Part shown: positions 582 to 54,426 of the stretch, in pieces
Numbering within the stretch: the stretch's first letter is position 1
Layout: every line of letters starts with the position of its first letter
Assembly (NCBI RefSeq): GCF_017356035.1
Contig: NZ_JAFIQX010000003.1
Location: 248,001 to 312,000, forward strand
Direction: 5' to 3'
Origin: Longitalea luteola
GTDB taxonomy: Bacteria; Bacteroidota; Bacteroidia; Chitinophagales; Chitinophagaceae
DNA length: 64,000 bases
Translations under genes and position numbers: made by a program
Notes under the pieces: generated by a model
What the model saw: the letters and a program-made list of their open reading frames with translations, nothing else
What the model was told of the DNA's origin: nothing
Databases searched by the model: none

Positions 582-1196
582 ATGTCCGCATTTGACCCGG
601 AACGTCATATTACCAATGTAGACTACAAGATTGTAGCCGCTTTGGAAAAAATTTCTGAAGTATTCAGGGTTTTGTTATGGACAGAAGCCAAGGAACATAA
701 GCTGAGTCCGATACAGATGCAGCTGTTGATCTTTATCAAATACCATAACTCCGATAAACAGCGCCGCATCGCTTCCATGGCGCGGGAGTTCAATCTTACC
801 AAAGCCACTATCAGTGACTCCATTAAAGTGCTGGAACTAAAAGGATTGATAAAACGGTCAGACGATGTGCTGGATTCCCGCAGTTTTAATTTTTCGCTTA
901 CTGAGCAGGGTATGAAGCTCACCGGCATGATAGAGAATTTCACCTTGCCCCTCGATGGCGCCATCGCTACCTTATCGCCGCTGCAAAAAGAGCAGTTTCT
1001 GATGGCGATACTTGAACTTATCTACCGCCTCAATCAGAATGGCATCATTTCTACCCAGCGCATGTGTTATAATTGTTTCTATTATAATGGCGACCGCCAA
1101 CAGGTGCACTATTGCAACCTGATGCAAAAGGCGCTGGTCATTGATGAATTGCGCATTGAATGCCCCGAGCATAAGACAACAAGCAATAGACAATAG
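582..1196 (+). CDS. MarR-family winged-helix regulator with C-terminal cysteine cluster
   Basis: A 204-residue DNA-binding protein. Residues ~20-150 form a MarR fold, with a winged helix-turn-helix around LTKATISDSIKVLELKGLI (72-90) and the wing at DDVLDSRSFNFSLT. MarR proteins act as dimers that usually repress neighbouring genes and respond to small molecules. After the fold comes an extra tail with four cysteines, C162, C165, C178 and C194, plus H176 and H197, spaced CX2C-X12-C-X15-C. This looks like a metal or Fe-S site and would make the protein a redox or metal sensor (inference). A possible -7 box, TATCTTTA, lies at 557-564. The stop codon sits inside a repeat arm, so the last ~8 residues (KTTSNRQ) appear to be repeat-encoded. 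The target genes are not evident. Confidence 0.85.
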   Translation: MSAFDPERHITNVDYKIVAALEKISEVFRVLLWTEAKEHKLSPIQMQLLIFIKYHNSDKQRRIASMAREFNLTKATISDSIKVLELKGLIKRSDDVLDSRSFNFSLTEQGMKLTGMIENFTLPLDGAIATLSPLQKEQFLMAILELIYRLNQNGIISTQRMCYNCFYYNGDRQQVHYCNLMQKALVIDELRIECPEHKTTSNRQ

Positions 1197-1297
1197 ACAA
1201 AAGGCAATGCGCTCGTATGGCGGGGTGTTTGATTGCTAACAAGCTGATTGCAGATAGGGTGCTTTGTCAATTGCCAATTGTCAATTGCCTATTGATC
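1180..1297. repeat. Two-armed word repeat between MarR and mce (CAATTG/CAATAG type)
   Basis: The left arm (1180-1210) repeats CAATAGACAATAGACAA. The right arm (1262-1297) repeats TCAATTGCCAATTG and ends CCTATTGATCC, so the arms are loosely inverted (CAATAGGCAATTG read backwards). About 50 bp of unrelated sequence separates them. Both flanking genes end inside the arms: the MarR TAG is at 1194-1196 and the mce TAG at 1291-1289, each within the word CAATAG. Confidence 0.75.
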
Positions 1298-1693
1298 CTT
1301 CATTTCCATACAGAGTTCAATCAACACGCCATTTGTTCCTTTTGGATGTAAAAAACAAACCAGTTTGTTGTCGGCACCGCGTTTGGGTTTATCATTGAGC
1401 AGCACAAAACCCGCATCCACCAGCCGCTTCATTTCTGCTTCAATATCGGCCACCTCAAAAGCAATGTGATGGATCCCTTCGCCCTTTTTATCAATATACC
1501 GGGCAATCACCCCTTCGGCACTGCTGCTTTCGAGCAGTTCAATTTTTGAATCACCGGTTTTAAAAAAAGCAGTAGTTACCTGTTCACTTTCCACCTGTTC
1601 CGTTTTGTAACAAGGCGTATTCAGCAGTTTTTCAAACAGGGGTATCGATTGCGATAACTCGCGAACGGCAATGCCTATGTGTTCAATTTTCAT
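1289..1693 (-). CDS. mce: Methylmalonyl-CoA epimerase
   Basis: A 134-residue glyoxalase/VOC-superfamily protein, the usual length for methylmalonyl-CoA epimerase. The enzyme interconverts (S)- and (R)-methylmalonyl-CoA in the cytoplasm, between propionyl-CoA carboxylase and the B12-dependent mutase. Two beta-alpha-beta-beta-beta halves are visible: EHIGIAVREL near the start and IHHIAFEVADIEAEMKRL from residue 74. The expected divalent-metal ligands are present: H5, H75/H76 and E126 in GVLIELC. The start MKIEHIGIAV fits the family exactly. No partner is adjacent, but a separate B12-binding subunit of the mutase type lies at 15.4 kb. A possible -7 box (TAACTTTC, minus strand, 1718-1725) precedes it. 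Confidence 0.93.
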   Translation of the reverse strand: MKIEHIGIAVRELSQSIPLFEKLLNTPCYKTEQVESEQVTTAFFKTGDSKIELLESSSAEGVIARYIDKKGEGIHHIAFEVADIEAEMKRLVDAGFVLLNDKPKRGADNKLVCFLHPKGTNGVLIELCMEMKDQ

Positions 1694-1756
1694 TTAATTG
1701 ATAAGTTGATAGGTTGGAAAGTTAATAAGTAATCTCAAGTTGGCAGTTTGCAAATT

Positions 1757-1866
1757 GTTACAGGTTACAAGTAACAGGTTTCAAGGCTTTTAAATTTGTG
1801 AACCCTGTCTGCTATACAGCCTTCCGGCGCTGAGGCCCTGTAACCTGAAACACGGAACCTGTAACC
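1757..1866. repeat. Two-armed word repeat upstream of iscS (ACAGGTTACAAG type)
   Basis: The left arm (1757-1786) carries TTACAGGTTACAAGTAACAG and related words. The right arm (1836-1866) carries CCTGTAACCTGAAAC and GGAACCTGTAACC, largely the reverse complement. The arms are about 50 bp apart and could fold into an imperfect hairpin. Confidence 0.75.
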
Positions 1867-1907
1867 ACTGTTTTTATTAACCGGCAACCAAAGAGAACCA
1901 TTATGAT

Positions 1908-1915
1908 TAATTTTG
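1908..1915 (+). promoter_or_regulatory. Promoter -7 box of the cysteine desulfurase gene
   Basis: TAATTTTG matches the Bacteroidota -7 consensus TAnnTTTG. It lies 13 bp before the ATG at 1928 and overlaps a possible TTG start at 1913, which argues for the ATG. No clear -33 box was found. Confidence 0.65.
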
Positions 1916-1927
1916 TGTTCACATATC

Positions 1928-3091
1928 ATGCTGAAACTGCCAATCTATCTCGATCATAATGCTACCACGCCCTGCGACCCGCGGGTAATGGAAGTGATGT
2001 TGCCTTTTTTTACCGAACAGTTTGGTAATGCCGCCAGTCGCAGCCACTCATTTGGCTGGCAGGCCGAAGAAGCCGTAGATTATGCCCGCGAACAGGTAGC
2101 CAGGCTTATAGGGGCAGAACCTAAAGAGATCATTTTCACCTCCGGCGCCACCGAAGGCGATAACCTGGCCATAAAAGGCGTGTTTGAAATGTATGCAGGC
2201 AAGGGCAATCACATCATTACCTGTGTTACAGAACACAAGGCCGTGCTGGACACCTGTAAACATATTGAGAAATTGGGTGGGGAAGTAACCTATCTGCCGG
2301 TCAATAAAGAAGGACTGATAGACGTGCAGCAGCTTGAAGCCGCGATCACGCCGCGCACCATCCTGATAGCCATCATGTATGCCAATAACGAAACAGGCAC
2401 TATTCAACCGGTGAAAGCGATCGGGGCATTGGCCAAAAAGCACAACGTATTGTTTTTTACGGATGCCACGCAGGCCGTTGGCAAAATACCGGTAGATGTT
2501 ATAAAAGATGATATTGATCTGCTTACCTGCAGCGCCCATAAGATGTATGGACCCAAAGGGGTGGGCGCCCTGTATGTACGAAGAAAGAATCCGCGGGTGC
2601 GGCTAACCGCCCAGCTGGATGGGGGCGGCCATGAACGAGGCATGCGCAGCGGCACCCTGAACGTGCCAGGCATTGCCGGTTTTGGCAAAGCCGCCGACAT
2701 TTGCCGCCAGGATCTGCAGGCAGATACGGAACGGATGAGCCGGTTGCGCGACAAACTTGAAAATGCCCTGTTGCAACTGGATGCCACCTTTGTCAATGGC
2801 AGCCGAACCAGCCGCTTACCCCACGTTGCCAATATCTCGTTTAACTTTGTAAATGGCGACGGATTAATGATGGGATTGAATAAAGAAGTGGCCCTGTCCT
2901 CTGGCGCCGCCTGTACCAGCGCTTCCATGGAACCGAGTTATGTGTTGAAAGCGCTGGGTGTGGAAGACGACCTGGCCCACAGCTCCTTGCGGTTTTCCAT
3001 TGGGCGGTACACAACTTCTGAGGAAATTGATTTTGTTATAGAAAAAGTTACCAATACAGTGAATGAACTGAGAGCAATGAAAACAATTTGA
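1928..3091 (+). CDS. iscS: Cysteine desulfurase, IscS/NifS type
   Basis: A 387-residue, fold-type I pyridoxal-phosphate enzyme that converts cysteine to alanine and passes the sulfur, as persulfide, to Fe-S cluster assembly. It begins LPIYLDHNATTPCDPRV, the family hallmark. The PLP lysine is K205 in CSAHKMYGPKG and the sulfur-carrying cysteine is C329 in SSGAACTSASMEPSYVL, a short group I-type loop. The ATG at 1928 is chosen because a -7 promoter box covers the alternative TTG at 1913. The next gene, 154 bp downstream, encodes an IscA-type carrier, so the two form a minimal Fe-S assembly pair. No IscU or SUF genes are in view. The stop codon touches the left arm of an AT-rich inverted repeat. 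Confidence 0.94.
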   Translation: MLKLPIYLDHNATTPCDPRVMEVMLPFFTEQFGNAASRSHSFGWQAEEAVDYAREQVARLIGAEPKEIIFTSGATEGDNLAIKGVFEMYAGKGNHIITCVTEHKAVLDTCKHIEKLGGEVTYLPVNKEGLIDVQQLEAAITPRTILIAIMYANNETGTIQPVKAIGALAKKHNVLFFTDATQAVGKIPVDVIKDDIDLLTCSAHKMYGPKGVGALYVRRKNPRVRLTAQLDGGGHERGMRSGTLNVPGIAGFGKAADICRQDLQADTERMSRLRDKLENALLQLDATFVNGSRTSRLPHVANISFNFVNGDGLMMGLNKEVALSSGAACTSASMEPSYVLKALGVEDDLAHSSLRFSIGRYTTSEEIDFVIEKVTNTVNELRAMKTI

Positions 3092-3096
3092 AAATT

Positions 3097-3244
3097 AGAT
3101 AATTCGATAATGTGATAATTGAAATACAGGAAGTTATATTGAATGAATACGCATAAATTGGCTAATTTTAAACAAATGAGCCCGAAAGGCGTTATATCGT
3201 AGAGTTTTTGAGTTTATCAAATTATCACATTATCACATTGATTA
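3097..3244. repeat. AT-rich inverted repeat between iscS and the IscA-type gene
   Basis: A perfect 15-bp inverted repeat: GATAATGTGATAATT at 3106-3120 and its reverse complement at 3220-3234. Each arm contains further degenerate copies (left 3097-3122, right 3212-3244) of the word GATAAT/TGTGATAAT, with about 90 bp between arms. The architecture matches the other word repeats of the window but with a different word. Confidence 0.8.
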
Positions 3245-3245
3245 T

Positions 3246-3578
3246 ATGATTTACGTTAGCGATAAAGCAAAAGAGAAAGTACATAAACTGATGGAGGAGA
3301 GCAACTATTCCACCGATGCCGGCTATTTTCTGCGGGTATCTGTAGTGGGCGGCGGCTGTTCCGGCCTCAGCTATAAAATGGATTTTGATAACCAGTCAAA
3401 ACCCGGGGACCAGGTTTTTGAAGACAATGGCATAAAAGTGGTCACTGACCTCAAAAGCTTTTTATACCTGGTGAATACCACCCTGGAGTTTTCAGAAGGG
3501 CTTAATGGGAAAGGGTTTTATTTCAACAATCCCAATGCCAGCCGTACCTGCGCCTGCGGTGAAAGTTTCTCGGTGTAA
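3246..3578 (+). CDS. IscA/ErpA-type iron-sulfur cluster carrier (HesB family)
   Basis: A 110-residue HesB-like domain protein, full length for the family. These proteins accept and deliver Fe-S clusters to target enzymes in the cytoplasm. The three conserved cysteines are present: C38 in VVGGGCSGLSY, and C102 and C104 in the C-terminal CACGESF. The ATG at 3246 gives the usual start (IYVSDKAKEKVHKLM). It follows the cysteine desulfurase in the same direction and ends with a strong terminator 22 bp after the stop. The choice between IscA, ErpA and SufA cannot be made from sequence alone. Confidence 0.92.
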   Translation: MIYVSDKAKEKVHKLMEESNYSTDAGYFLRVSVVGGGCSGLSYKMDFDNQSKPGDQVFEDNGIKVVTDLKSFLYLVNTTLEFSEGLNGKGFYFNNPNASRTCACGESFSV

Positions 3579-3600
3579 TCAACATTTTTATATAGGGAAG

Positions 3601-3630
3601 GCCCCACTCTCAACCGGGAGTGGGGCTTTG
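3601..3630 (+). terminator. Terminator of the Fe-S gene pair
   Basis: A 9-bp G/C stem (GCCCCACTC with GAGTGGGGC, 3601-3609/3618-3626) is followed by TTTG. Confidence 0.8.
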
Positions 3631-3632
3631 TC

Positions 3633-3807
3633 GTATCTGGTTCGTACCAGATTCGGGTTAGCGTTTGGTATGTGTCGATGGTGACACATCTGTTTTACGT
3701 AGGTGTTCCGTACATGTCTCGTCTCTTTAAAGGAACGGGATATAAACGAGACATATACGAGACATCCACGGAATATGTACGAAACATGGGCGAAGCTGAC
3801 CAGATAC
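3633..3807. other. Hairpin-rich stretch, candidate structured RNA or decayed palindromic element
   Basis: A nested set of inverted repeats. The outer pair is GTATCTGGT (3633-3641) with ACCAGATAC (3799-3807). A competing local hairpin is TCTGGT-tcgt-ACCAGA (3636-3651). A small hairpin is ATGTGTC/GACACAT (3670-3689). A long central hairpin pairs 3706-3722 with 3757-3773 (15 of 17 positions) and continues imperfectly outward. No convincing coding region or consensus promoter was found. The stretch lies between two terminators (3601-3630 and 3943-3973). Confidence 0.5.
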
Positions 3808-3842
3808 AAACCCGGTCCCGGGCTTGATCACAACAGGTAGTG

Positions 3843-3902
3843 GCGGAGGTCGGAAATCCGAAGTCGGAGGTTAGAAGTTAGAAGTCGGCAGTCAGAAGTG
3901 GG
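3843..3902. repeat. GAAGTCGG-type word repeat
   Basis: Imperfect direct copies of GAAGTCGG/GAAGTTAG/GCAGTCAGAAGT. Similar words recur inside the gltX gene at 16355-16387. No inverted second arm was seen here. Confidence 0.6.
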
Positions 3903-3910
3903 ATTAACTG

Positions 3911-3937
3911 CTTCCCCTTTAGGGGGCTGGGGGGTAA
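3911..3937 (+). repeat. C/G-rich intergenic element, copy 1
   Basis: The core is CCCCTTTAGGGGGCTGGGGG. Close copies occur at 55889-55915 (plus) and 55599-55622 (minus), and a shortened one at 53230-53254. Confidence 0.75.
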
Positions 3938-3942
3938 AATAA

Positions 3943-3973
3943 AAATCCCCCGTTATTACGGGGGGACTTTTTA
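3943..3973. terminator. Terminator, possibly bidirectional
   Basis: A stem of TCCCCCG with CGGGGGGA has a 6-nt loop, preceded by AAAATAAAAA and followed by CTTTTTA. It could stop transcription in both directions, isolating the stretch on its left from gldF. Confidence 0.7.
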
Positions 3974-4135
3974 TGCAGTAGGTTTCGGCTATTTATAATT
4001 GAACTAGAGAAAATAGACGGTAACCGGATAGATCAATTTTTCATGGATAGTTAAAAGTGTACACGCAATATAATAAAATTGCTGAAACGTGCGTCATAGA
4101 GCCGCATCTTTTATTAACATATACTTATAATCACT

Positions 4136-4143
4136 TATTTTCG
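4136..4143 (+). promoter_or_regulatory. Possible -7 box of gldFG
   Basis: TATTTTCG, one mismatch from TAnnTTTG, lies 5 bp before the gldF ATG. No -33 box is obvious. Confidence 0.35.
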
Positions 4144-4148
4144 CTCTC

Positions 4149-4874
4149 ATGTGGTCTGTTTGTAAAAAGGAATTCCGGCAATTTTTCAGCAGCCTGACCG
4201 GCTATATTGCCATCATCGTATTCCTACTGTTAAATGGATTGTTCCTGTTCGTATTCCCTGATACCAATATCCTGGACTATGGCTTTGCCACCCTTGACAA
4301 ATTCTTCGAGCTGGCCCCCTGGATCTTGTTATTGCTGATACCTGCCATTACTATGCGCAGTTTTGCCGACGAATTCAAAGGCGGCACCTTCGAGATCTTA
4401 CAAACCAAGCCGCTTAGCCGATGGCAACTCGTTTCCGGAAAATACTTCGGGTCGCTGGGCGTAGTGCTTATTGCCCTCATCCCCACTATCATATATCCCA
4501 TCAGCGTGCAGCAGCTGGCCGCCACCGGCGGTGGTATCGATCTGGGTGGAACCATCGGTTCTTACATCGGCCTTATTTTCCTGGCCGGCGTTTTTGTGGC
4601 CATTGGCATAGCCTGCAGCAGTTTAACCAATAATGCGGTGGTGGCCTTCATAACCGGCGCTTTCCTTTGCTTTGTATTGTACAGCGGCTTTAACGCCGTT
4701 AGCCGCATACCGGCCCTGCAGGCAGGCGCCGATTATTATATTGAAATGCTTGGCATCGACTTCCACTACCGCAGCGTAAGCAGGGGAGTGGTGGATAGCC
4801 GCGATATTATTTATTTTCTCAGCGTTATTCTGTTCTTCCTCATTGTTACCAATCGCAATTTGTTGAAACGATAA
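4149..4874 (+). CDS. gldF: Gliding-motility ABC transporter permease GldF
   Basis: A 241-residue inner-membrane permease of the ABC-2 type. It begins MWSVCKKEFRQFFSSLTGYIAIIVFLLLNGLFL, the standard GldF amino end, and has about six membrane segments. The conserved cytosolic segment MRSFADEFKGGTFEILQTKPLSRWQLVSGKYFG follows the second helix. In the family, GldF pairs with GldG and the ATPase GldA to form a transporter needed for gliding in Flavobacterium; its substrate is unknown. gldG follows after 14 bp, so the two are co-transcribed. GldA is not in the window, as is common because it is usually encoded elsewhere. Confidence 0.92.
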   Translation: MWSVCKKEFRQFFSSLTGYIAIIVFLLLNGLFLFVFPDTNILDYGFATLDKFFELAPWILLLLIPAITMRSFADEFKGGTFEILQTKPLSRWQLVSGKYFGSLGVVLIALIPTIIYPISVQQLAATGGGIDLGGTIGSYIGLIFLAGVFVAIGIACSSLTNNAVVAFITGAFLCFVLYSGFNAVSRIPALQAGADYYIEMLGIDFHYRSVSRGVVDSRDIIYFLSVILFFLIVTNRNLLKR

Positions 4875-4888
4875 TCCGGAAATACACC

Positions 4889-6598
4889 ATGAACAAATTA
4901 TTGTCCTCGAAACTATGGTGGTTGTTTTTGCTGATCGTACTGGTAGGTATCAATTACCTGGCATCAGTAGTGCATACCCGCGTTGATCTTACCCAGGAAA
5001 AAAGATATACCTTATCGCCTGCTACCAAAAAATTATTAAGAGGCTTACACGATAAAGTTTCCGTCACGGTATTGCTCACGGGCGATATGCCGGCCGGTTT
5101 CAAAAAACTATCCAACAGCACCCAGGAGATGTTGCAGGAATTCAAAGAACTCGCCGGCAGCAATCTTCAGTTTAAATTCGAAAAAGCCGGAGAAGGTCTG
5201 GACGATTCGGCCAGAGCGAAAATGCAATTGCATTTAGACAGCCTCGGCCTGAAACCAACCAACATTAAAGTAAAAGCAAAGGCCGGTGAAGCCCAGGAAG
5301 AACGGCTGGTATATCCGGGGGCACTGATCACATACAGGGATCGCGAAGTTGCCGTTGACCTGCTACAGGGCCAGGATATGACTGGTGGCGTGCAATCGCT
5401 GAATAATGCCGAAGCCTTACTGGAATATAAAATGGCCCGCTCCATTCAAAAGATCACGGCCGATACCGTTCCGGCGATCGGTTACCTGGTGGGCAATGGA
5501 CAACCGCTTACCTACAACGTGTACGACCTTATTGATCGCACGCTTCGCCAGGAATACCGCTTTGGATTTGTACCTATTGACAGTGTGCCGGTAATTCCGC
5601 CGGTGTTTGATGCCCTGGTGATCGTTAAACCTACTGAACCCTTCAGTGATCAGCAAAAGCTGAAGATCGATCAGTATATTATGAACGGCGGTAAGGTCTT
5701 CTGGCTTATTGATAAACTGTATGCCGAAATGGACAGCCTCATGCGTTCGCGCAGTGATTTTGTAGCGTATGACCGCAACCTGAACCTCGATGATCTGTTG
5801 TTCAAATACGGCGTGCGCATCAACGGCAACCTGGTGCAGGACCTGCAATGCGATAAAATTCCCCTGGTGGTAGGCAATTATGGCAACCAACCGCAGATGC
5901 AGCTGATACCCTGGCCTTATTTCCCGACATTATCGTCTTATTCGGGCCACCCGATTGCCAAGAACCTCGACAATGTATTATCCATCTTCCCCAATTCAAT
6001 CGATACGGTAAAAAATAATATCAGGAAAACGATCCTGCTGTCAACCTCAGAAAGTTCCCGCGTCATTAGTACGCCGGCCATTGTATCATTGAACAGTGTT
6101 AAAACCGAAGAGGACCTCAAGACATTCAACCAGGCTTTCATTCCCGTGGCGGTGCTTTTGGAAGGAAGATTTTCTTCATTGTACACGAACCGCCTGTCGA
6201 CCGGTACGCTCGATACCCTGGCGGGGATCTATAAACAACCGTTCCGGGCGGCTACCCAACAGGAAAGCAAAATGATCGTGGTGTCTGATGCCGACCTGGT
6301 AGCCAATGTGGTCACGGCGAATGAAGGGCCTCTTTTCATGGGGTATAACCAGTTCACCAATAACCAGTACGCTAACAAGGATTTCTTCCTCAATTGCATT
6401 CAATACCTTACCGATTCATCGGGAATTCTTGAAACGCGCGGCAAAGATTTCGCCCTGCGCCTGCTGGATACGAAAAGAACGGAAGAAGACCGGGTGCAAT
6501 GGCAGCTGATGAATATCGGGTTGCCGGTGGTGCTGGTGTTGTTGTTTGGAGTTGTATATCAGGCAGTAAGGAAGAGGAAGTACCAGGGGAAGAAATAG
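4889..6598 (+). CDS. gldG: Gliding-motility-associated ABC transporter substrate-binding protein GldG
   Basis: A 569-residue protein anchored at both ends. A membrane helix lies at ~9-29, a second at ~540-558, and a basic tail (RKRKYQGKK) ends the protein. The segment RVDLTQEKRYTLSPATKKLL just after the first helix is the GldG/ABC-2 auxiliary signature. The large central part is the DUF4350/GldG-type periplasmic domain, for example ALVIVKPTEPFSDQQKLKIDQYIMNGGKVFWLID near 230-270. It acts with GldF and GldA in gliding (family knowledge). It lies 14 bp after gldF. Its stop codon abuts a word repeat, with no hairpin terminator seen. Confidence 0.92.
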   Translation: MNKLLSSKLWWLFLLIVLVGINYLASVVHTRVDLTQEKRYTLSPATKKLLRGLHDKVSVTVLLTGDMPAGFKKLSNSTQEMLQEFKELAGSNLQFKFEKAGEGLDDSARAKMQLHLDSLGLKPTNIKVKAKAGEAQEERLVYPGALITYRDREVAVDLLQGQDMTGGVQSLNNAEALLEYKMARSIQKITADTVPAIGYLVGNGQPLTYNVYDLIDRTLRQEYRFGFVPIDSVPVIPPVFDALVIVKPTEPFSDQQKLKIDQYIMNGGKVFWLIDKLYAEMDSLMRSRSDFVAYDRNLNLDDLLFKYGVRINGNLVQDLQCDKIPLVVGNYGNQPQMQLIPWPYFPTLSSYSGHPIAKNLDNVLSIFPNSIDTVKNNIRKTILLSTSESSRVISTPAIVSLNSVKTEEDLKTFNQAFIPVAVLLEGRFSSLYTNRLSTGTLDTLAGIYKQPFRAATQQESKMIVVSDADLVANVVTANEGPLFMGYNQFTNNQYANKDFFLNCIQYLTDSSGILETRGKDFALRLLDTKRTEEDRVQWQLMNIGLPVVLVLLFGVVYQAVRKRKYQGKK

Positions 6599-6733
6599 TT
6601 GCCGGTTGCCGGTTGCCAGGCCTTGAATTTTTTAACTGTTACCTATTTTTCATGCATCCCGCAATAGGTGCCCGGTAACTGGTAAGCTGCACTACAGATT
6701 AAACTGGAAACTTGTAACCTGTAACCTGGGCCC
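6598..6733. repeat. Word repeat after gldG (GTTGCCGGTTGCC and GTAACCTG types)
   Basis: GTTGCCGGTTGCCGGTTGCC stands directly at the gldG stop (6598-6620). A middle piece CCCGGTAACTGGTAAG lies at 6671-6686, and a right part with CTTGTAACCTGTAACCTGG at 6710-6728. Left and right use related words in opposite sense. The right part lies about 30 bp before the terC promoter box. Confidence 0.65.
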
Positions 6734-6760
6734 TGTACGCCGTCACAACCTGTAAACGTG

Positions 6761-6768
6761 TATCTTTG
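6761..6768 (+). promoter_or_regulatory. Promoter -7 box of terC-murF/alr
   Basis: TATCTTTG matches TAnnTTTG exactly and lies 19 bp before the ATG at 6788. It overlaps the alternative GTG at 6758, so the ATG is the real start. Confidence 0.7.
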
Positions 6769-6787
6769 CCCACCATTTAATATTGAC

Positions 6788-7753: not shown

Positions 7754-7766
7754 TCAAATTAACCGG

Positions 7767-10262: not shown

Positions 10263-10355
10263 TGCAACCTGTAAGGTCCATCCCGGGGTTTTATTGAGTT
10301 AGAAAAGTCCGCTGCACCAGGCAGGTCGGTTCACCGTAACAGCCGCTCATCAAAA

Positions 10356-11224: not shown

Positions 11225-11321
11225 TGTACGAAGTACGAAGACTGAGGTTAAAGAAAGAAGTAAGAGGTACGAAATACAGGATTATCTTACGTCCTACATC
11301 CTACTTCTTACTTCACATACC
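11225..11321. repeat. Two-armed word repeat between lspA and fumC (GTACGAAG / GAAGTAAG type)
   Basis: The left arm (11225-11280) repeats GTACGAAGTACGAAG and GAAGTAAGAGGTACGAAATAC. The right arm (11287-11321) carries GTCCTACATCCTACTTCTTACTTC, the reverse-complement sense of the same words. Confidence 0.7.
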
Positions 11322-12777: not shown

Positions 12778-12855
12778 CATGGTTTCGGGTTACCGGATGC
12801 CCGGTCCCGGGTTTCAATGCCCATAAATGCGTGAAGTTATCGGTGGAGATCAGCT

Positions 12856-12967
12856 GTTGCAAGTTTCAGGTTGGAGGTTACACGGCCACAAATATTTGGC
12901 ACCTCGTCAACATTCAACCCGCTGCAGGTAAAAGCCCTGAACCCTGCGACTTGTAACCTGTAACTCA
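12856..12967. repeat. Two-armed word repeat between fumC and the LacI gene (GCAAGTTTCAGGTT type)
   Basis: The left arm (12856-12884) carries GTTGCAAGTTTCAGG and GGAGGTTACA. The right arm (12935-12967) carries CCCTGCGACTTGTAACCTG and TAACTC, mostly the reverse complement. Confidence 0.7.
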
Positions 12968-14087: not shown

Positions 14088-14178
14088 CGGGTTACCAGTT
14101 ACCAGTCGCCAGTTACAGGTTGTTGCAAACAGTTTTGGTTCTCGAAATTAAGGACCCGGTAACCGGTGACTGGTAACA
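14088..14178. repeat. Two-armed word repeat (GTTACCAGT type)
   Basis: The left arm (14088-14122) repeats GGTTACCAGTTACCAGTCGCC. The right arm (14154-14178) carries CCCGGTAACCGGTGACTGGTAAC, the reverse-complement sense. They are 31 bp apart. Confidence 0.75.
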
Positions 14179-15849: not shown

Positions 15850-15860
15850 CCATAATAAAG

Positions 15861-15900
15861 AAAAAGAGGGTCACCTGTTACAGCTGACCCTCATTTTTAT
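15861..15900. terminator. Bidirectional terminator between the B12 subunit gene and gltX
   Basis: The 12-bp stem GAGGGTCACCTG / CAGCTGACCCTC has one mismatch, with AAAGAAAAA before and ATTTTTATTTT after. It therefore has a U tract on both strands and serves both convergent genes. Confidence 0.85.
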
Positions 15901-15931
15901 TTTGGTAGACCTGTTTGTATTTATTATTTCT

Positions 15932-25788: not shown

Positions 25789-25829
25789 TCATGAATGACA
25801 AATGTGAAATTTCAGTGCGCGATCAACAA

Positions 25830-25884
25830 ATCGACAATCGTGAATCGACAATCGTCAGGCGTTAATCGTGAATCGTCAATCGGC
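25830..25884. repeat. AATCGTGAATCG word repeat
   Basis: A 12-bp word, AATCGTGAATCG, occurs twice (25836-25847 and 25864-25875) among degenerate copies (ATCGACAATCG). A near-identical word (11 of 12) lies inside pyrD at 55056-55067. Confidence 0.7.
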
Positions 25885-25891
25885 AGTATAA

Positions 25892-34510: not shown

Positions 34511-34592
34511 TGCGCATGGAGGGACTCGAACCCCCACACCTCGCGGCATCAGATCCTAAGTCTGACGTGTCTACCAATTTCACCACATGCGC
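34511..34592 (-). tRNA. tRNA-Leu (anticodon UAG)
   Basis: A complete cloverleaf on the minus strand. The acceptor GCGCATG pairs with CATGCGC. The anticodon loop CTTAGGA gives UAG (reads CUA and CUN codons). It has a long variable arm (ATGCCGCGAGGTGT region), T arm GGGGGTTCGAGTCCC and discriminator A, as leucine tRNAs require. CCA is not encoded. A hairpin terminator follows. Confidence 0.95.
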
Positions 34593-34601
34593 TTTTGATT
34601 A

Positions 34602-34699
34602 GTTCATAGTTTTCAGTTCAAAGTTTAGAATTTACAGTTTCGGTACCTGGAGTTTCAGATATCCTGAAACTTTAAACTAAGAACTTTGAACAGCGAACC
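34602..34699. repeat. Two-armed word repeat upstream of tRNA-Leu (GTTCAAAGTTTAGAA type)
   Basis: The left arm (34602-34658) repeats AGTTCATAGTTTTCAGTTCAAAG and AGTTTCAG. The right arm (34664-34699) carries CCTGAAACTTTAAACTAAG and AACTTTGAACAG, the reverse-complement sense. The arms meet in a short hairpin, GTTTCAG/CTGAAAC. Confidence 0.75.
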
Positions 34700-36984: not shown

Positions 36985-36998
36985 TTATTTCTGATTGC

Positions 36999-37210
36999 TT
37001 GATTTTGGGATTTCGAGATTTCAAGAATTTGAGATTTTTAGAAAAATCTTAAATTCTATGACTTTATTGGTCCGGTTTTGAATTTGCTCGAAACGGGGGC
37101 TCATAAAATCTAAAAATCTTAAATGCGGGCGCAAGGTTTGATCCTGATGCTGTGAAAAATTAAGATCTGGAAATCTCAAAATTTCAAAATCCCAAAATCT
37201 CAAAATCTCT
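36999..37210. repeat. AT-rich two-armed word repeat between rel and purA
   Basis: A perfect 13-bp inverted pair, GATTTTGGGATTT (37001-37013) and its reverse complement (37187-37199), lies within longer imperfect arms (36999-37042 and 37160-37210) made of the word GAGATTT/GATTTTGAGA. About 120 bp separate the arms. Confidence 0.8.
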
Positions 37211-40414: not shown

Positions 40415-40423
40415 CTTTATGTG

Positions 40424-40522
40424 GGCAGTTGGCGGTTAGCGGCTAAAAAAACTCAGGCGGCCCCACATTAATCGGGCCGCCTGAAATGGCGAGATAACTC
40501 CCAATTGGCAACTGCCAATTGA
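40424..40522. repeat. Two-armed word repeat between pabB and the lytic transglycosylase gene
   Basis: The left arm (40424-40444) carries GGCAGTTGGCGGTTAGCGG. The right arm (40501-40522) carries CCAATTGGCAACTGCCAATTG. They share an 8-bp inverted word (GGCAGTTG at 40424-40431, CAACTGCC at 40509-40516). A terminator stands between the arms. Confidence 0.65.
40445..40484 (-). terminator. Terminator of the lytic transglycosylase gene
   Basis: A perfect 11-bp stem (TCAGGCGGCCC / GGGCCGCCTGA, 40453-40463/40474-40484) is followed on the minus strand by seven T. Confidence 0.85.
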
Positions 40523-45735: not shown

Positions 45736-45925
45736 TGTGTTTTACATGTTTAAAGAATTCTACATTATCTCTCCCTCTCTATGTGTCTCGGGTTTACCAT
45801 AGTGAGATGTGAATGTGCGAAAATACAAAAAAAGAGGCAGCGGCGCTGCAAGCATTTTGAAGTCAGTTGTTTGTAAATGGGGAATTTGGTGATATGGGTT
45901 GTGTCCGGATTACGGGTTCTGGGAT

Positions 45926-46030
45926 AGGGTTTCAGGGTACAGGTTACAAGTTGCAGGGTCAAAATGGCTCGTATCGGTTGGCAATTTCGAGTAAAAGCCA
46001 TGTAACCTGGAACCTGGCACCTGCAACTCA
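45926..46030. repeat. Two-armed word repeat between zapA and rny (CAGGTTACAAGTTGCAG type)
   Basis: The left arm (45926-45960) carries TTTCAGGGTACAGGTTACAAGTTGCAGGG. The right arm (46000-46030) carries TGTAACCTGGAACCTGG and CACCTGCAACTCA. Inverted words are CAGGTTACA (45940-45948) with TGTAACCTG (46001-46009), and AGTTGCAG (45949-45956) with CTGCAACT (46021-46028). The zapA stop codon (46030-46028) lies in the right arm. Confidence 0.7.
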
Positions 46031-46718: not shown

Positions 46719-46724
46719 ACGGTC

Positions 46725-49477: not shown

Positions 49478-49515
49478 GAAACAGTCTATGATTTTAAATA
49501 GTTCAACGATGGCAG

Positions 49516-49545
49516 CAAAGATAGGTTACCGGTTGCAGGTTACAA
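49516..49545 (-). promoter_or_regulatory. Two-box promoter of pheT inside a word repeat
   Basis: Minus strand: TTG (49545-49543), 19-bp spacer, TATCTTTG (49523-49516). The -33 box and spacer are made of repeat words, so the element contributes the promoter. Confidence 0.75.
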
Positions 49546-49716
49546 GTTGCAAGTTACAGGGCTCTGAAGGTATTTTCAGTTGCCGGTTTACCCGCTGCTG
49601 GTTTCCGGTTATCAGAAAATCCGTTACCGGTTGCAGGTTTCAGAAAGTAAAATACTGGGAGAGGTGTGTAAATGAAAGTATGCCCCGAAAACTGGAGACT
49701 GGTAACCGGGGACTGA
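49523..49716. repeat. Long word repeat upstream of pheT (GTTACCGGTTGCAGGTT type)
   Basis: A 17-bp word, GTTACCGGTTGCAGGTT, occurs twice in the same direction (49525-49541 and 49623-49639). Between and around it are degenerate copies (ACAAGTTGCAAGTTACAGG, TTGCCGGTTTACC, CTGGTTTCCGGTTATCAG). A reverse-sense end, ACTGGTAACCGGGGACT, lies near 49700-49716. Confidence 0.8.
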
Positions 49717-49718
49717 TT

Positions 49719-50702: not shown

Positions 50703-52283
50703 ATGGATTTAACAAATCTGAACAAAGACCGAAAACAACGCCGACGTAGTTCAATTGACCTGAGCACTATGGTGTACGGGAAAGTACCGCCACAGGCAAA
50801 AGACCTGGAGGAAGCCGTACTGGGCGCCATTATGCTCGAAAAGACTGCCTTTGACGTAGCCGTGGAAATTTTGAAAGCGGAGTGCTTTTATGTAGACGCT
50901 CATCAGCGTATTTACCGTGCCATGTTAAGCCTTCAGCAAAAAAGCCAGCCTATTGATATTTTGACAGTGGTGGAGGAGCTGAGGAGCAAAGAAGAACTGG
51001 AAATGGTGGGAGGTCCCTATTACGTAACCCGTTTAACGAATTCAGTTGTTTCTTCAGCCAATATTGAAGCACACGCAAAGATCATTCTGCAAAAATTCAT
51101 TCAACGCGAACTGATCCGTATCAGTGGTGAAATTATCAGTGATGCCTATGAAGACAGCGCCGACGTGTTCGACCTGCTCGATGAAGCGGAGGCAAAGCTG
51201 TTCGAGATCACGAATAACCACATGAAGAAGAACTATGACAGTATCGATACTGTGCTCGTACAAACGGTACAGCGTATAGAAGATATGCGTCACCGTACGG
51301 AAGATATTACCGGGGTGCCCAGTGGTTTTCCTTCACTCGATAAAGTGACCTATGGCTGGCAGAACTCCGATCTGATCATCCTCGCTGCCCGTCCTGCCGT
51401 GGGTAAAACGGCCTTCGCCCTTAACCTGGCGCGTAATGCCGCATTGAATACTGTTCGTCCCACGCCGATCGTATTCTTCAGCCTTGAGATGAGCTCGGCG
51501 CAGCTGGTAACACGTATCCTCAGCGCCGAAAGTGAGGTGTGGCTCGAAAAGATCTCGCGCGGCAAGATGGAAGACTATGAAATGAAGCAGTTGTATGCCA
51601 AGGGTATTCAAAAACTCGCGCAGGCGCCGATCTTTATCGACGACACCGCCGCCCTGAACGTATTTGAGCTGCGTGCCAAATGCCGCCGGTTGAAGACCAA
51701 ACACAACATCGGCCTTATTATCATCGACTATTTACAGCTGATGAGTGGCGCCGGTAACGGTAAGAACACCAACCGTGAGCAGGAGATCAGTACCATTTCG
51801 CGTAACCTGAAAATGCTGGCTAAGGAGTTGATGACGCCCATTATCGCCCTGTCGCAGTTAAGCCGTGCCGTGGAAACACGTAAAGATGGCAACAAGATGC
51901 CGCAGTTGAGTGACCTTCGTGAATCGGGTGCCATTGAGCAGGATGCCGACATGGTAATGTTCATTTACCGTCCCGAGTATTACGATATTACTTCCAATGA
52001 AATGGGAGAAAGCAATAAAGGAGAAACCCATGTACGTATAGCGAAACACCGTAACGGTTCGCTGGAAACCATCAGGCTGAAAGCCCAGCTGCATATTCAA
52101 AAGTTTGTTGAGTTTGAAGGGGATGATTTCAGTGGTTTGGGTATGCCGGGCGGTGGCAGTTGGAAACCGGTGCCCGATGGCGGCGCCGGAGCCGGTGGCG
52201 ATGATGGCGCCCGGTTGTACATACAAGCCGGCAGCAAAATGAACGATATGCCGTACGGTGACGATGACGAGGCCCCGTTTTAA
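50703..52283 (+). CDS. dnaB: Replicative DNA helicase DnaB
   Basis: A 526-residue hexameric 5'-3' helicase that unwinds DNA at the replication fork. The N-terminal DnaB domain (~28-130) includes PPQAKDLEEAVLGAIML. The RecA-like motor (~200-470) has Walker A AARPAVGKTAFALNLA (K235, T236), then FFSLEMSSAQLV, Walker B LIIIDYLQLMSG (~338-349) and LSQLSRAVETRKDGNKMPQLSDLRESGAIEQDADMV. The C-terminal ~45 residues are a Gly/Asp-rich tail. No intein is present. It is transcribed alone; a small hairpin follows the stop, and a 14-bp perfect terminator stands about 150 bp downstream. Confidence 0.96.
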   Translation: MDLTNLNKDRKQRRRSSIDLSTMVYGKVPPQAKDLEEAVLGAIMLEKTAFDVAVEILKAECFYVDAHQRIYRAMLSLQQKSQPIDILTVVEELRSKEELEMVGGPYYVTRLTNSVVSSANIEAHAKIILQKFIQRELIRISGEIISDAYEDSADVFDLLDEAEAKLFEITNNHMKKNYDSIDTVLVQTVQRIEDMRHRTEDITGVPSGFPSLDKVTYGWQNSDLIILAARPAVGKTAFALNLARNAALNTVRPTPIVFFSLEMSSAQLVTRILSAESEVWLEKISRGKMEDYEMKQLYAKGIQKLAQAPIFIDDTAALNVFELRAKCRRLKTKHNIGLIIIDYLQLMSGAGNGKNTNREQEISTISRNLKMLAKELMTPIIALSQLSRAVETRKDGNKMPQLSDLRESGAIEQDADMVMFIYRPEYYDITSNEMGESNKGETHVRIAKHRNGSLETIRLKAQLHIQKFVEFEGDDFSGLGMPGGGSWKPVPDGGAGAGGDDGARLYIQAGSKMNDMPYGDDDEAPF

Positions 52284-52330
52284 TGCCGACGTTTGCAGTC
52301 GGCATCCCGACAAGCAAAGCTTCGCCGGGA

Positions 52331-52422
52331 TCCAATATTGATATCGAATATTGAGTTGTAAAATTGAAGTGACGTAATTCGTCTTGAATCTTCAACGGAA
52401 ACTGGTGATTCAATATTTGATG
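52331..52422. repeat. Word repeat downstream of dnaB (CAATATTGA type)
   Basis: The left part (52331-52370) carries TCCAATATTGATATCGAATATTGAG and AAAATTGAAG. The right part (52384-52422) carries TTGAATCTTCAACGG and TTCAATATTTGATG. The structure is looser than in the other elements. Confidence 0.5.
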
Positions 52423-52432
52423 TTATTTACCA

Positions 52433-52470
52433 GGCCCTGTTTGCCAACTGGCAAACAGGGCCTTTTGTTT
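52433..52470 (+). terminator. Terminator downstream of dnaB
   Basis: A perfect 14-bp stem (GGCCCTGTTTGCCA / TGGCAAACAGGGCC) with a 2-nt loop is followed by TTTTGTTTT. Confidence 0.9.
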
Positions 52471-52517
52471 TACGGTATGGTACATAATATGCATTACTTT
52501 GCAGCAAAGAACCGCTC

Positions 52518-53246
52518 ATGAACCTGCCGCTTTTTTATATTTCGGATGTAGCTGCCGGACAGCCGGAGATTGAACTGGACGAAGACACGTCGAAACACGT
52601 AGTGAATGTATTACGCATGAAGAAAGGCGAACAGCTGCATTTGACCAATGGGAAAGGCTTTTTATTACTTACCTCCATTATAGACGATCATAAAAAGCGA
52701 TGCCGCGTAACTGTTTTGAACGAACAGTTTATATCGCCCGCCAGCCGTAAAACCAGTATCGCCATTTCCCTGATCAAAAACAGCAGCCGGTTCGAATGGT
52801 TCCTGGAAAAAGCCGCCGAGATCGGAATTTCCGAGATCATACCGATGTTATGTGACAGAACCGAAAAAGAACATTTCCGGTTCGACCGGATGCAGCAGAT
52901 CCTGGTGAGCGCCATGTTGCAATCACAACAGGTATGGCTGCCCGTTCTGCATCAGCCGGTTGGGTTTGGACAATTATTAAAACAGGAAGATATTATTGCC
53001 ACCACCCAAAAATTCATAGCCCACTGCATGCCCGGTTCAAAACAAAGCCTGGCGCAACTGGTGAATGCCTCTCTTCCTTCCCAGATCATTCTGATTGGGC
53101 CGGAAGGTGATTTTACACCCGAAGAAGTAGCTTTTGCTACGGAACACTTTTTCATTCCGGTAACCCTGGGTGAAACACGTCTGCGCAGTGAAACGGCCGG
53201 CATGGTAGCGGCCGTATTGTTGAAGACATACCCCCCTGCCTCTTAA
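52518..53246 (+). CDS. rsmE: 16S rRNA m3U1498 methyltransferase
   Basis: A 242-residue SPOUT-class enzyme that methylates U1498 of 16S rRNA using S-adenosylmethionine. The N-terminal PUA-like part has TSKHVVNVLRMKKGEQLHLTNGKG. The knotted SPOUT domain has KNSSRFEWFLEKAAEIGISEIIPMLCDRTEK, then LIGPEGDFTPEEVAFA and VTLGETRLRSETAGMVAAVLL, the deep-knot SAM site. It acts on the 30S subunit in the cytoplasm. The last residues (YPPAS) and the stop codon are encoded by a C/G-rich repeat, so the C-terminal tail is repeat-derived. Confidence 0.95.
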   Translation: MNLPLFYISDVAAGQPEIELDEDTSKHVVNVLRMKKGEQLHLTNGKGFLLLTSIIDDHKKRCRVTVLNEQFISPASRKTSIAISLIKNSSRFEWFLEKAAEIGISEIIPMLCDRTEKEHFRFDRMQQILVSAMLQSQQVWLPVLHQPVGFGQLLKQEDIIATTQKFIAHCMPGSKQSLAQLVNASLPSQIILIGPEGDFTPEEVAFATEHFFIPVTLGETRLRSETAGMVAAVLLKTYPPAS

Positions 53247-53254
53247 AGGGGGAG
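53230..53254 (+). repeat. C/G-rich intergenic element, short copy at the rsmE stop
   Basis: ACCCCCCTGCCTCTTAAAGG followed by GGGAG. It shares the C-run, central (T)TTAAA/AAAG and G-run with the other copies but lacks the second CAGCCCCC block. The rsmE TAA (53244-53246) is inside it. Confidence 0.55.
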
Positions 53255-53300
53255 AAAAGCAATAGACAATAGGCAAAAAGCAAATAGCAAAAGCAAAAGA
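53255..53300. repeat. CAATAGACAATAGG word repeat after rsmE
   Basis: Degenerate copies AGCAATAGACAATAGGC and AAGCAAATAGCAAAAGC, the same word type as at 1180-1210. Confidence 0.6.
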
Positions 53301-53312
53301 AGCTGGAAATAA

Positions 53313-53360
53313 AACAGGCCATAAGCGACCTTCATTTGCTTATGGCCTGTTACCGTTTTT
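53313..53360. terminator. Bidirectional terminator between rsmE and terC
   Basis: A perfect 14-bp stem (AACAGGCCATAAGC / GCTTATGGCCTGTT) has an 11-nt loop. TTTTATTT follows on the minus strand and, after ACCG, TTTTT on the plus strand. It serves both convergent genes. Confidence 0.85.
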
Positions 53361-53368
53361 AACTCTTA

Positions 53369-54160
53369 TTAATTATTTAATTTTTGCTCTTCTTTTTTAA
53401 CGATGGGTTCGTGCAGCTCAACCGGTTTCGACTTTTTACGCATCCACATATTCAGCATTTCAACGCCAAACGAGAAGGCCATGGCGAAGTAGATATATCC
53501 CTTTTGAATATGGCTTTCGTGTATGGGTTCAAGGCCTTCAAAGAACAGGCTGAAGCCTACCATTAACAGGAACGCCAGCGCCAGCATTTTGAGGGTAGGA
53601 TGTTTATGGATGAAATTGGCAATCTTGTCAGAAAAGAAGAACATGACGATCATGGCAATGATCACTGCAGTTATCATTACAGGTACATGCTGTGCAAGTC
53701 CCACTGCGGTAATGATACTGTCGAAAGAGAATACCATATCAATAAGGATGATCTGGAATATCACAGAGCCGAAGGATGCCTTACGCGGGTTGCCTTCATA
53801 CATTTCCTCATCGCCTTCCAGCTTATGATGGATCTCCTTAACTGTTTTATATAACAGGAACAGGCCCCCGGCAAGCATGATAAGGTTACGCAGCGTAAAA
53901 TCAGCGGCATGCCCCCTGAAGTCAAATCCGAACAGGCGGGAATTGCCATTTTTCACTAACCATCCAATACCCATCAATAGACAAACACGCACAGAAATAC
54001 CCGCGATCATCCAGATGCGGCGGGCTTTCAATTGTTGCTTCTTATCGAGCCGGCCCATTAAAATGGACACGAAGATCACGTTATCGATACCTAATACAAT
54101 TTCCAGCAGCGACAGGGTGAGTAAGCTGATTAATCCGTCTACAGTTAATAGTTCTTGCAT
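53369..54160 (-). CDS. TerC-family integral membrane protein (second copy)
   Basis: A 263-residue membrane protein with seven or more helices. The signature LTLSLLEIVLGIDNVIFVSILM lies near the start, and a second acidic helix motif is ILIDMVFSFDSIITAVGL. It is shorter than the TerC at 6.8 kb and belongs to the YceF/YoaE-like branch of the family. These proteins are linked to metal (manganese) homeostasis (family knowledge). A TTG-N19-TATTTTTG promoter at 54214-54185 lies inside the longer open frame and fixes the ATG at 54160. The C-terminus is charged (ELHEPIVKKEEQKLNN). Confidence 0.9.
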   Translation of the reverse strand: MQELLTVDGLISLLTLSLLEIVLGIDNVIFVSILMGRLDKKQQLKARRIWMIAGISVRVCLLMGIGWLVKNGNSRLFGFDFRGHAADFTLRNLIMLAGGLFLLYKTVKEIHHKLEGDEEMYEGNPRKASFGSVIFQIILIDMVFSFDSIITAVGLAQHVPVMITAVIIAMIVMFFFSDKIANFIHKHPTLKMLALAFLLMVGFSLFFEGLEPIHESHIQKGYIYFAMAFSFGVEMLNMWMRKKSKPVELHEPIVKKEEQKLNN

Positions 54161-54184
54161 GGTGGTCAGTAATAAAATGAAGGG

Positions 54185-54214
54185 CAAAAATAAGGCGGCG
54201 AAACCAATAGCCAA
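54185..54214 (-). promoter_or_regulatory. Two-box promoter of the second terC
   Basis: Minus strand: TTG (54214-54212), exact 19-bp spacer, TATTTTTG (54192-54185). The -33 side lies in a CAATAGCCAATATGCAATA word repeat (54204-54239). Confidence 0.78.
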
Positions 54215-54239
54215 TATGCAATACACAATAAGCAATGGT
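54204..54239. repeat. CAATAGCCAATATGCAATAC word repeat
   Basis: Degenerate copies of CAATAN, the same word family as at 1180-1210 and 53255-53300. It overlaps the -33 box of terC. Confidence 0.55.
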
Positions 54240-54315
54240 TAAGGCCTGTTTTTGCTTTAGTGCCTTATTAGTATCAAAAGATGCATGAATGTTTCAGGTA
54301 GTGTAAAAAAGAATT

Positions 54316-54426
54316 ACCGGTTACCAGTTACCGGTTGCCAGGCATTAATGGCTGCTTGCACTAAAATCGTACACCCCTGGCTGTTGTCAATTGCCCTCTT
54401 GCCAATCGTCAATTGCCAATTGATCA
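54316..54426. repeat. Word repeat after pyrD (GTTACCGGTTGCC plus CAATTGCC)
   Basis: The left part (54316-54342) carries CCGGTTACCAGTTACCGGTT. The right part (54385-54426) carries TGTCAATTGCC and GTCAATTGCCAATTGATC, almost the same words as the right arm at 1262-1297. The pyrD stop codon (54426-54424) lies in the last word. Confidence 0.75.

What the first reader, a model, noticed from the sequence alone, without database searches (positions are those of the whole stretch)
1180..54426. A family of two-armed intergenic elements whose 'word' changes from locus to locus
At least 14 gaps carry an element made of imperfect copies of one short word, often with a second arm in reverse-complement sense 30-120 bp away: 1180-1297, 1757-1866, 3097-3244, 6598-6733, 11225-11321, 12856-12967, 14088-14178, 34602-34699, 36999-37210, 40424-40522, 45926-46030, 49523-49716, 54316-54426, with simpler forms at 3843-3902, 25830-25884, 53255-53300 and 54204-54239. 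The words fall into classes (CAATTGCC, GGTTACAAG, GTTACCGGTTGCC, GAAGTCGG, AATCGTGAATCG, and AT-rich forms). The same architecture with different sequence suggests an active process that copies short words locally, rather than one transposon family. I do not know a described element of this kind.
Basis: partly seen in the sequence, partly recalled or inferred. Interest (0 to 1): 0.8.

Follow-up and report, generated by a model that had tools for sequence, protein, structure and literature searches.

The report
Word-armed mobile elements carrying IVP gene
The odd repeats between genes are two-armed elements built from 7- or 8-letter DNA words; related elements, in bacteria as distant as cyanobacteria, carry between their arms a small gene of unknown function (a 'four-helix bundle' protein), which suggests they are an overlooked kind of mobile DNA and may explain a repeat type known in cyanobacteria for decades.

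Summary
All 17 listed sites beat dinucleotide shuffles for period-7/8 arrays; the window has 22 arrays against 0.47 expected. Periods 7, 8 and 14 dominate. Arms are often complementary, share a word, and point inward (139 of 144). At the same gap in sister species whole elements are replaced by others with different words. One core (core A, 250 matches in 10 Niastella genomes) carries about 21 left words in 39 copies; its strand follows local GC skew in 15 of 15 copies, as expected for insertion through single-stranded DNA. Key result: genes of Pfam PF05635 (23S rRNA intervening-sequence protein, IVP) sit inside such elements: arrays on both sides of 8 of 10 Niastella genes (five loci), against 37 of 522 ordinary genes, and of 12 of 12 plasmid genes from six phyla (0 of 4 control stretches). 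I read the window's elements as gene-less members of IVP-carrying, word-armed mobile elements. Shown: anatomy, dispersal, presence/absence, association. Inferred: IVP recognises words; single-stranded intermediate. No enzyme was found.

The parts
1180..1297 (.). two-armed element, words CAATAGA / CAATTG; overlaps the stop codon at 1196
   Evidence: no shuffle reaches array or arm score; sequence
1698..1730 (.). extra octad array TTGATAAG, in the same gap as the next element
   Evidence: period 8, score 11; no such array in the syntenic gap of G007
1757..1866 (.). two-armed element, word GTTACAG; DNA hairpin z -2.9
   Evidence: orthologous gaps of several relatives hold GTTACAG-type elements
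3085..3244 (.). two-armed octad element, word GATAATNN, inner motif GAAATACAG just inside the left array
   Evidence: same octad in many Bacteroidota
3843..3902 (.). one-armed array, word GAAGTCG
   Evidence: array yes, no complementary arm (23% of shuffles)
6598..6733 (.). two-armed element, words GTTGCCG / GTAACCT, with dispersed core B (about 6616-6675); starts at the stop codon
   Evidence: arm complementarity itself not significant (6%); in G007 the gap is empty (51 bp), in G003 and G004 it holds a TTTGTTG element
11225..11321 (.). two-armed element, word GAAGTAA/GTACGAA, inner motif GAAATACAG
   Evidence: similar stretches at other loci of relatives
12781..12967 (.). GTTRCC array (12781-12812) plus two-armed element (12856-12967)
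14088..14178 (.). two-armed element, word GTTACCA; in G007 the same site holds an AATGTGCT element, in G003 and G005 AAGCTGT
   Evidence: z -3.1
15850..15931 (.). empty site: here G002, G003, G005, G009 carry a PF05635 gene between word arms (gap 508-609 bp against 82, 76, 129 and 58 bp in G000, G007, G001, G004)
25829..25885 (.). one-armed array, word AATCGTG/AATCGAC, before an intrinsic-terminator-like hairpin
34600..34699 (.). two-armed element, word AGTTTA; DNA hairpin z -4.3; next to the tRNA gene at 34511-34592
36992..37210 (.). two-armed octad element, word GATTTCGA, with a third inner array
   Evidence: similar elements at this gap in relatives
40421..40522 (.). arms around an intrinsic-terminator-like hairpin between convergent genes
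   Evidence: the four relatives compared have 53-68 bp gaps without arrays
45906..46030 (.). two-armed element, word GGTTACA
49523..49716 (.). GGTTACA/GTTGCC arrays, composite
53255..53300 (.). one-armed array, word CAATAGG
54204..54239 (.). short CAATANN array overlapping the end of a gene
54314..54426 (.). hetero-armed element: left GTTACCG, right CAATTGCC
   Evidence: arms not complementary beyond chance

Best explanation
These are mobile, mostly gene-less elements of a class whose gene-bearing members carry a four-helix-bundle protein gene of Pfam PF05635 (23S rRNA intervening-sequence protein, IVP, related to Avd of diversity-generating retroelements) between two arms. Each arm is a tandem array of one 7- or 8-nt word; the arms are usually complementary and face inward. 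Small copies (arms plus a short core, no gene) are scattered through intergenic DNA, often just behind stop codons. Most likely mechanism: IVP binds its own word array in the single-stranded, hairpin-forming element or its transcript, and the element enters the chromosome through single-stranded DNA at the lagging-strand template; each IVP clade serves its own word, so elements with other words replace one another at the same permissive gaps, and arms then lengthen, shorten and drift by slippage. Shown: anatomy, polarity, dispersal, word change on a common core, replacement and presence/absence between species, link to PF05635, replication-linked orientation of one core family. Inferred: word recognition by IVP, the single-stranded intermediate, descent of the small copies from gene-bearing ones. 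Unknown: the enzyme that cuts or copies.
For: (1) IVP link: arrays of score 10 or more within 130 nt on both sides of 8 of 10 PF05635-like genes in 1.94 Mb of Niastella DNA (five orthologous loci; 4 of 4 on contig C33) and of 2 of 2 in loci fetched by a word pattern, against 37 of 522 genes on C33; flanks complementary beyond the best of 50 shuffles in 11 of 12 (19-27 against 11-17); seven of the proteins were scanned and all are PF05635. In 12 of 12 plasmid PF05635 loci, picked for taxonomic spread before their flanks were read, from Cyanobacteriota (7), Bacteroidota, Pseudomonadota, Spirochaetota, Bacillota and Chloroflexota, 7-nt arrays lie on both sides and complementary arms bracket the gene (the bracketing pair of L307 and the 7-nt unit of L308 and L316 are read by eye); 0 of 4 control stretches of the same plasmids. 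(2) Word and protein clade go together in the few cases at hand: the GATAAT octad with one clade in Niastella, Ferruginibacter (L229) and Flavobacteriaceae (L225); AAGCY, GTTACC, AAGTTNT and GATTTCG words each with another clade, one locus each. (3) 6 of 12 gene-bearing elements have the inner motif AATACA seen at the inner end of small elements of several word families. (4) Presence/absence: window gap 15850-15931 and the aro gap. (5) Dispersal: core A, 250 matches in 10 genomes, 3 of 741 pairs orthologous, array at the left in 34 of 39 and at the right in 28 of 39 copies, control 1 of 39. (6) Core A strand agrees with local GC skew in 15 of 15.
Against: No IVP gene lies in the window itself, and most loops in the window have no detectable relative, so descent of these copies from gene-bearing elements rests on shared words, polarity and inner motif. 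Loops of same-word elements are mostly unrelated (8 of 372 pairs against 2 shuffled). Replication-linked orientation is strong only for core A; core B is 7 of 9 (three at one orthologous site), arms with AATACA 20 to 25, arms with TCGCGA 4 to 13, core A in 3-kb loci 22 of 30, and strand clustering is not significant in G002 (1437 of 20000 shuffles). PF05635 has no catalytic activity that I know of. Neighbouring arrays in a gap often carry different words (complementary at SW 0.5 or more in 32% of 121 pairs). The ten Niastella genes are only five independent loci, and L225 and L229 were fetched by a word pattern. The plasmid set is 12 of the records matched by two searches (28 and 25, partly the same) and includes two loci of one plasmid; the second six were chosen after the first six had been read. 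No target-site duplication was seen by eye.
Confidence: 0.72

Rival explanations
1. Host-function hairpins: the arms are selected bidirectional terminators or mRNA 3'-end stabilisers, recruited behind stop codons, and IVP genes merely like such places.
For: Arrays are densest in convergent gaps (3.46 per kb) and rarest in divergent ones (1.25); 54 of 188 arrays in tandem gaps lie within 20 nt of the upstream stop codon; constant unit positions differ less between G000 and G007 (7.0%) than other aligned intergenic bases (14.7%); complementarity is kept where words are replaced at some gaps.
Against: Does not explain arms bracketing IVP genes in six phyla, dispersed cores, one-armed arrays, or strand following replication. 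Free space behind stop codons would explain the placement as well (inference).
Confidence: 0.13
2. Pure mutation: replication slippage in 7-nt steps plus template switching between arms makes neutral repeats, without mobility.
For: Tandem homogeneous arrays, copy-number differences, known excess of 7-nt repeats in bacteria (Mrazek as cited in PMC4679880, passages seen).
Against: Fixed inward polarity 139 of 144, cross-family inner motif, the same octad in many lineages of one phylum, dispersed cores, IVP link.
Confidence: 0.05
3. REPIN-like elements moved by a Y1 (TnpA/RAYT) transposase, perhaps the conserved one between the aro genes.
For: Single-copy Y1 protein with HUH motif and Y---Q--HH motif in all 10 Niastella genomes, features of subclass 1.2 (PMC6006769, section 18 read); an element beside it in 9 of 10 species; lagging-strand-like orientation of core A.
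Against: Array density does not follow this protein outside the genus: 5.9 per 10 kb intergenic in 12 genomes with it, 3.2 in 8 without a match, 5.5 in 20 labelled other-Y1 (one of them, G055, was not searched for Y1), 38.3 in the genus; its tyrosine is F in 3 of 10 aligned homologues; the second, RAYT-like protein has no arrays beside it in the two loci read.
Confidence: 0.1

Closest known systems
23S rRNA intervening sequences (IVS) with IVP reading frame (Pfam PF05635)
   Same: same protein family between complementary ends; the rRNA setting of IVSs is recalled
   Different: here outside rRNA genes, arms are tandem 7/8-nt words, several word families, many gene-less copies
STRR heptanucleotide repeats of heterocystous cyanobacteria (recalled) and TAACTGA heptamer repeats (PMC4679880)
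   Same: intergenic 7-nt tandem arrays, Cyanobacteria plus Bacteroidota; PMC4679880 notes other heptamers nearby and relatives with shorter gaps without repeats (section 12 read)
   Different: there described as direct repeats of one word, with one inverted case, and no partner gene in the parts I read; here two inward arms, variable words, IVP gene
REPIN/RAYT systems
   Same: many short non-autonomous two-armed intergenic copies with fixed polarity; core A orientation like ssDNA insertion (recalled for IS200/IS605)
   Different: no GTAG-type fixed palindrome, arms are arrays, associated protein is PF05635 and is carried by several elements per genome
Avd of diversity-generating retroelements
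   Same: PF05635 is described as resembling Avd (PMC10053308, passage seen); one Niastella protein scores weakly, below cut-off, with bAvd PF22296
   Different: no reverse transcriptase is annotated beside the plasmid IVP genes read; not searched systematically in Niastella

Membership tests
REPIN / REP-RAYT | one conserved 20-40 nt palindrome with GTAG/CGTC tag | tested here: not met
   arms are 7/8-nt arrays of many words
REPIN / REP-RAYT | cognate RAYT/Y1 gene flanked by the repeats and co-distributed | tested here: not met
   density does not follow aro-Y1, though an element lies beside it in 9 of 10 Niastella; RAYT-like gene without arrays in 2 loci
classical MITE / IS derivative | constant terminal inverted repeat | tested here: not met
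   arm words vary between copies of one core
classical MITE / IS derivative | target-site duplication | tested here: inconclusive
   none seen by eye at the aro gap or gap 6599; no systematic test
STRR / heptamer repeats | tandem 7-nt intergenic units | tested here: met
STRR / heptamer repeats | the published cyanobacterial STRR words themselves | not tested
   no published STRR list was compared; cyanobacterial arms were only seen around IVP genes
IVP-bearing intervening sequence | PF05635 gene between complementary ends | tested here: met
   for gene-bearing elements; no gene in the window copies
IVP-bearing intervening sequence | location in 23S rRNA | tested here: not met
   annotated neighbours in the plasmid cases are protein genes; no annotation for L313
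IVP-bearing intervening sequence | excision from the transcript | not testable with these tools
   no RNA data
ssDNA-inserting element (IS200/IS605-like behaviour) | orientation follows replication direction | tested here: inconclusive
   core A 15 of 15, core B 7 of 9, AATACA arms 20 of 45

The most novel reading that the evidence does not exclude
A cross-phylum class of mobile elements without a transposase of their own, defined by a PF05635 four-helix-bundle protein that reads a tandem 7/8-nt word: each protein clade owns a word, elements invade gaps (even between cas1 and cas2, or hsdS and hsdR) through single-stranded DNA, and the heptad repeats seen for decades in cyanobacteria and Bacteroidota are their arms.
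Probability: 0.5. Interest if true: 0.92.

Novelty: new variant of a known kind. Interest (0 to 1): 0.85.

Why it matters
It gives one explanation for several separate puzzles: heptad repeats in cyanobacteria and Bacteroidota, the function of the widespread PF05635 'S23/four helix bundle' genes, and the many unexplained intergenic hairpins of Niastella (144 matched two-armed elements in 1.94 Mb). If IVP proteins each read one short word, they would be a natural set of sequence-reading modules, and a DNA element that spreads without its own transposase would be a new problem for mobile-DNA biology, directly testable by binding and mobility assays.

Tried and rejected
Local arm-to-arm copying: own arm only 0.61 against 0.57 for same-word arms elsewhere, no length correlation. 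Polarised growth of arrays at the core: 111 against 85 of 231, not clear. Loops as one family: 8 of 372. Window loops: of 15 searched in 3.39 Mb of held DNA only 6618-6700 has copies at other loci; weak single hits in G007 for two others. Y1/RAYT as the driver. Rho-type YC spacing in the C-rich arm was considered by eye and dropped because the G-rich arm is next to the stop codon. Core A and core C as one family: weak (8.4 against 6.6 shuffled, but 8.1 in the other direction). Rfam: two tRNAs in the window, nothing in eight core A loci. PF05635 relatives in viral contigs: none confirmed in three scans. Core A outside the genus: 0 of 145 other genomes of the family, with stricter filters. Literature: ten searches gave no description of this architecture or of arrays at PF05635 genes; I saw listings there, the library lacks most subscription journals and preprints.

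Rows dropped before counts: arrays with unclear polarity (score under 0.5); only same-period neighbours within 200 bp; gaps over 900 bp (33 of 34 used); single copies on a contig (58 of 59 in G004, 39 of 40 in G002); 63 tRNAs of G005 reduced by hand to 37 clusters. In one search words are read also from the copies without a clear array. The key words that set polarity came from elements seen earlier; one search is the leave-one-out check (54 of 59). G007:292367 counts as not two-sided although its reading frame runs through its own GATTTCG array.
Full report
Setting. The window is bases 248001-312000 of contig C33 of a 7.3-Mb genome.

Every one of the 17 sites has a period-7 or period-8 array reached by at most 2% of shuffles (none at 13 sites), and 11 of 14 testable sites have complementary arms. 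In 720 kb of the contig periods 7, 8 and 14 dominate, with a weak excess at 11 and 15, and only between genes. Gaps of 80 bp or more carry arrays in 109 of 251 tandem, 34 of 61 convergent and 23 of 76 divergent cases, often right behind a stop codon.

Anatomy. Neighbouring arrays in one gap are inverted relatives in 32% of 121 pairs against 3% for random pairs, direct relatives in 16.5% against 4.7%. A word reads toward the loop on the left and is complemented on the right: 54 of 59 in a leave-one-out test and 139 of 144 over 1.94 Mb of genus DNA. The inward strand is G-rich (skew 0.27). By eye words keep about five fixed positions and vary at two; between G000 and G007 fixed positions differ in 7.0%, variable ones in 23.5%, other aligned intergenic bases in 14.7%. 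A motif AATACA sits at the inner end of arrays of several word families (45 of 591 inner flanks, 37 of them at the array end; 28 of 591 outer flanks, unclustered).

Between species. In 225 orthologous gaps of G000 and G007, 126 have no array, 34 both with the same words, 12 partly, 20 with different words, 29 only in G000, 4 only in G007; both-occupied gaps are 66 against 29.6 expected by chance. The sequences show whole elements exchanged at one site. The aro gap is the clearest: five species share one loop with AATGG words, three carry another element with AATCG words whose core is dispersed elsewhere, G009 is empty; G007 has AATGG words and a loop not clearly related.

Dispersed cores. Starting from repeats that include the loop, core A was found at 16 places with different arm words and core B at 8 with GTTRCC words. 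A sequence model finds core A 250 times in the ten Niastella genomes (8 to 59 each) and in none of 145 other genomes of the family, there with stricter filters. In 39 distinct copies the core is 61% identical on average, arrays are present left in 34 and right in 28 (control 1 of 39), with about 21 left and 14 right words, and the two arms of a copy match better than shuffled pairings (7 of 500 permutations reach it). So the word does change on a common scaffold.

Orientation. Core A lies on the strand given by local GC skew in 15 of 15 copies inside large fetched regions, some with weak skew (0.01); in the complete chromosome G005 20 of 21 copies fit two opposite arcs of about equal length (borders fitted by eye), same-strand neighbours are 16 of 20 (48 of 20000 shuffles), in G004 41 of 50 (7 of 20000), in G002 22 of 30 (1437 of 20000, not significant); tRNA clusters in G005 agree with the arcs in only 21 of 37 and genes on C33 are 291 to 231. 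Genes flanking core A are oriented ++ 14, +- 11, -- 8, -+ 3 relative to it, so gene direction does not explain the bias. This is what insertion of single-stranded DNA at the lagging-strand template would give, as recalled for IS200/IS605. Core B (7 of 9) and AATACA arms (20 to 25) do not add to it.

The protein. Reading loops by eye, one 421-bp loop between GATAAT arms held a reading frame. Its relatives were sought in all fetched DNA: 12 genes, 10 with arrays on both sides; in Niastella DNA, where stretches were not chosen for words around these genes, 8 of 10 (five loci; 4 of 4 on C33) against 37 of 522 ordinary genes. Flanks are complementary beyond 50 shuffles in 11 of 12. Pfam names seven scanned proteins PF05635, 23S rRNA-intervening sequence protein; a solved relative is 2rld. 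Five clades go with five words, and the GATAAT clade is shared by Niastella, Ferruginibacter and a Flavobacteriaceae genome, the last two fetched by that word. Six of the 12 have the AATACA inner motif on one side or both. The window gap 15850-15931 is an empty site of such an element.

Independent test. tblastn of two proteins against plasmid records found 28 and 25 records, mostly cyanobacteria. Twelve loci were chosen for taxonomic spread before reading flanks, in two batches of six: seven cyanobacterial, one each from Bernardetia, Azospirillum, Treponema, Monoglobus and Chlorohelix. All twelve have 7-nt arrays on both sides, and complementary arms bracket the gene, the right arm often overlapping its 3' end (the pair in L307 and the unit in L308 and L316 by eye). 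Two sit inside cas gene clusters (cas6/cas4, cas2/cas1) and one between hsdS and hsdR. Four control stretches of the same plasmids show no arrays with complementary arms; one has an ordinary 24-nt hairpin.

Conclusion and limits. The window's elements are best read as gene-less members of PF05635-bearing, word-armed mobile elements. In the 80 loci polarity is 18 inward to 1, with 69 single. Recognition of words by the protein, the single-stranded intermediate and the missing enzyme are inference or unknown. Papers: PMC4679880 (abstract, passages, section 12), PMC6006769 (abstract, passages, section 18), PMC3733652, PMC5524665 and PMC10053308 (passages). STRR, rRNA IVS biology and IS200/IS605 strand preference are recalled.

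Noticed in passing
window 3690-3822: A different dispersed repeat of about 100-130 bp (GGTGTTCCGTACATGTCTCGT...), 75-86% identical at seven other places of the genome and at many places in relatives.
   Followed up: no
L060:10213-10668 (C39 of the same genome): A conserved single-copy Y1 (IS200-like) protein between the DAHP synthase/chorismate mutase gene and aroB (names by eye) in all 10 Niastella genomes and in other genera; its tyrosine is replaced by F in three homologues. It looks domesticated.
   Followed up: partly
L269, L270: A second, RAYT-like protein of about 200 aa (NHLH/NHMH, YIHENP motifs) in seven of the Niastella genomes, without arrays at its borders in the two loci read.
   Followed up: partly
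C33:161881-162004 and 647564-647687: A 124-bp intergenic repeat, 94% identical, rich in TTCGCAA motifs, unrelated to the arrays.
   Followed up: no
L310, L307: PF05635 genes inserted between cas2 and cas1 (Anabaena cylindrica plasmid) and between cas6 and cas4 (Pseudanabaena plasmid).
   Followed up: no
inner ends of arrays, several loci: Second inner motif TCGCGA/CTCGCG (TCGCGA in 26 of 591 inner flanks against 2.9 in shuffles), part of cores A and C; its arms lie 4 with and 13 against GC skew.
   Followed up: partly
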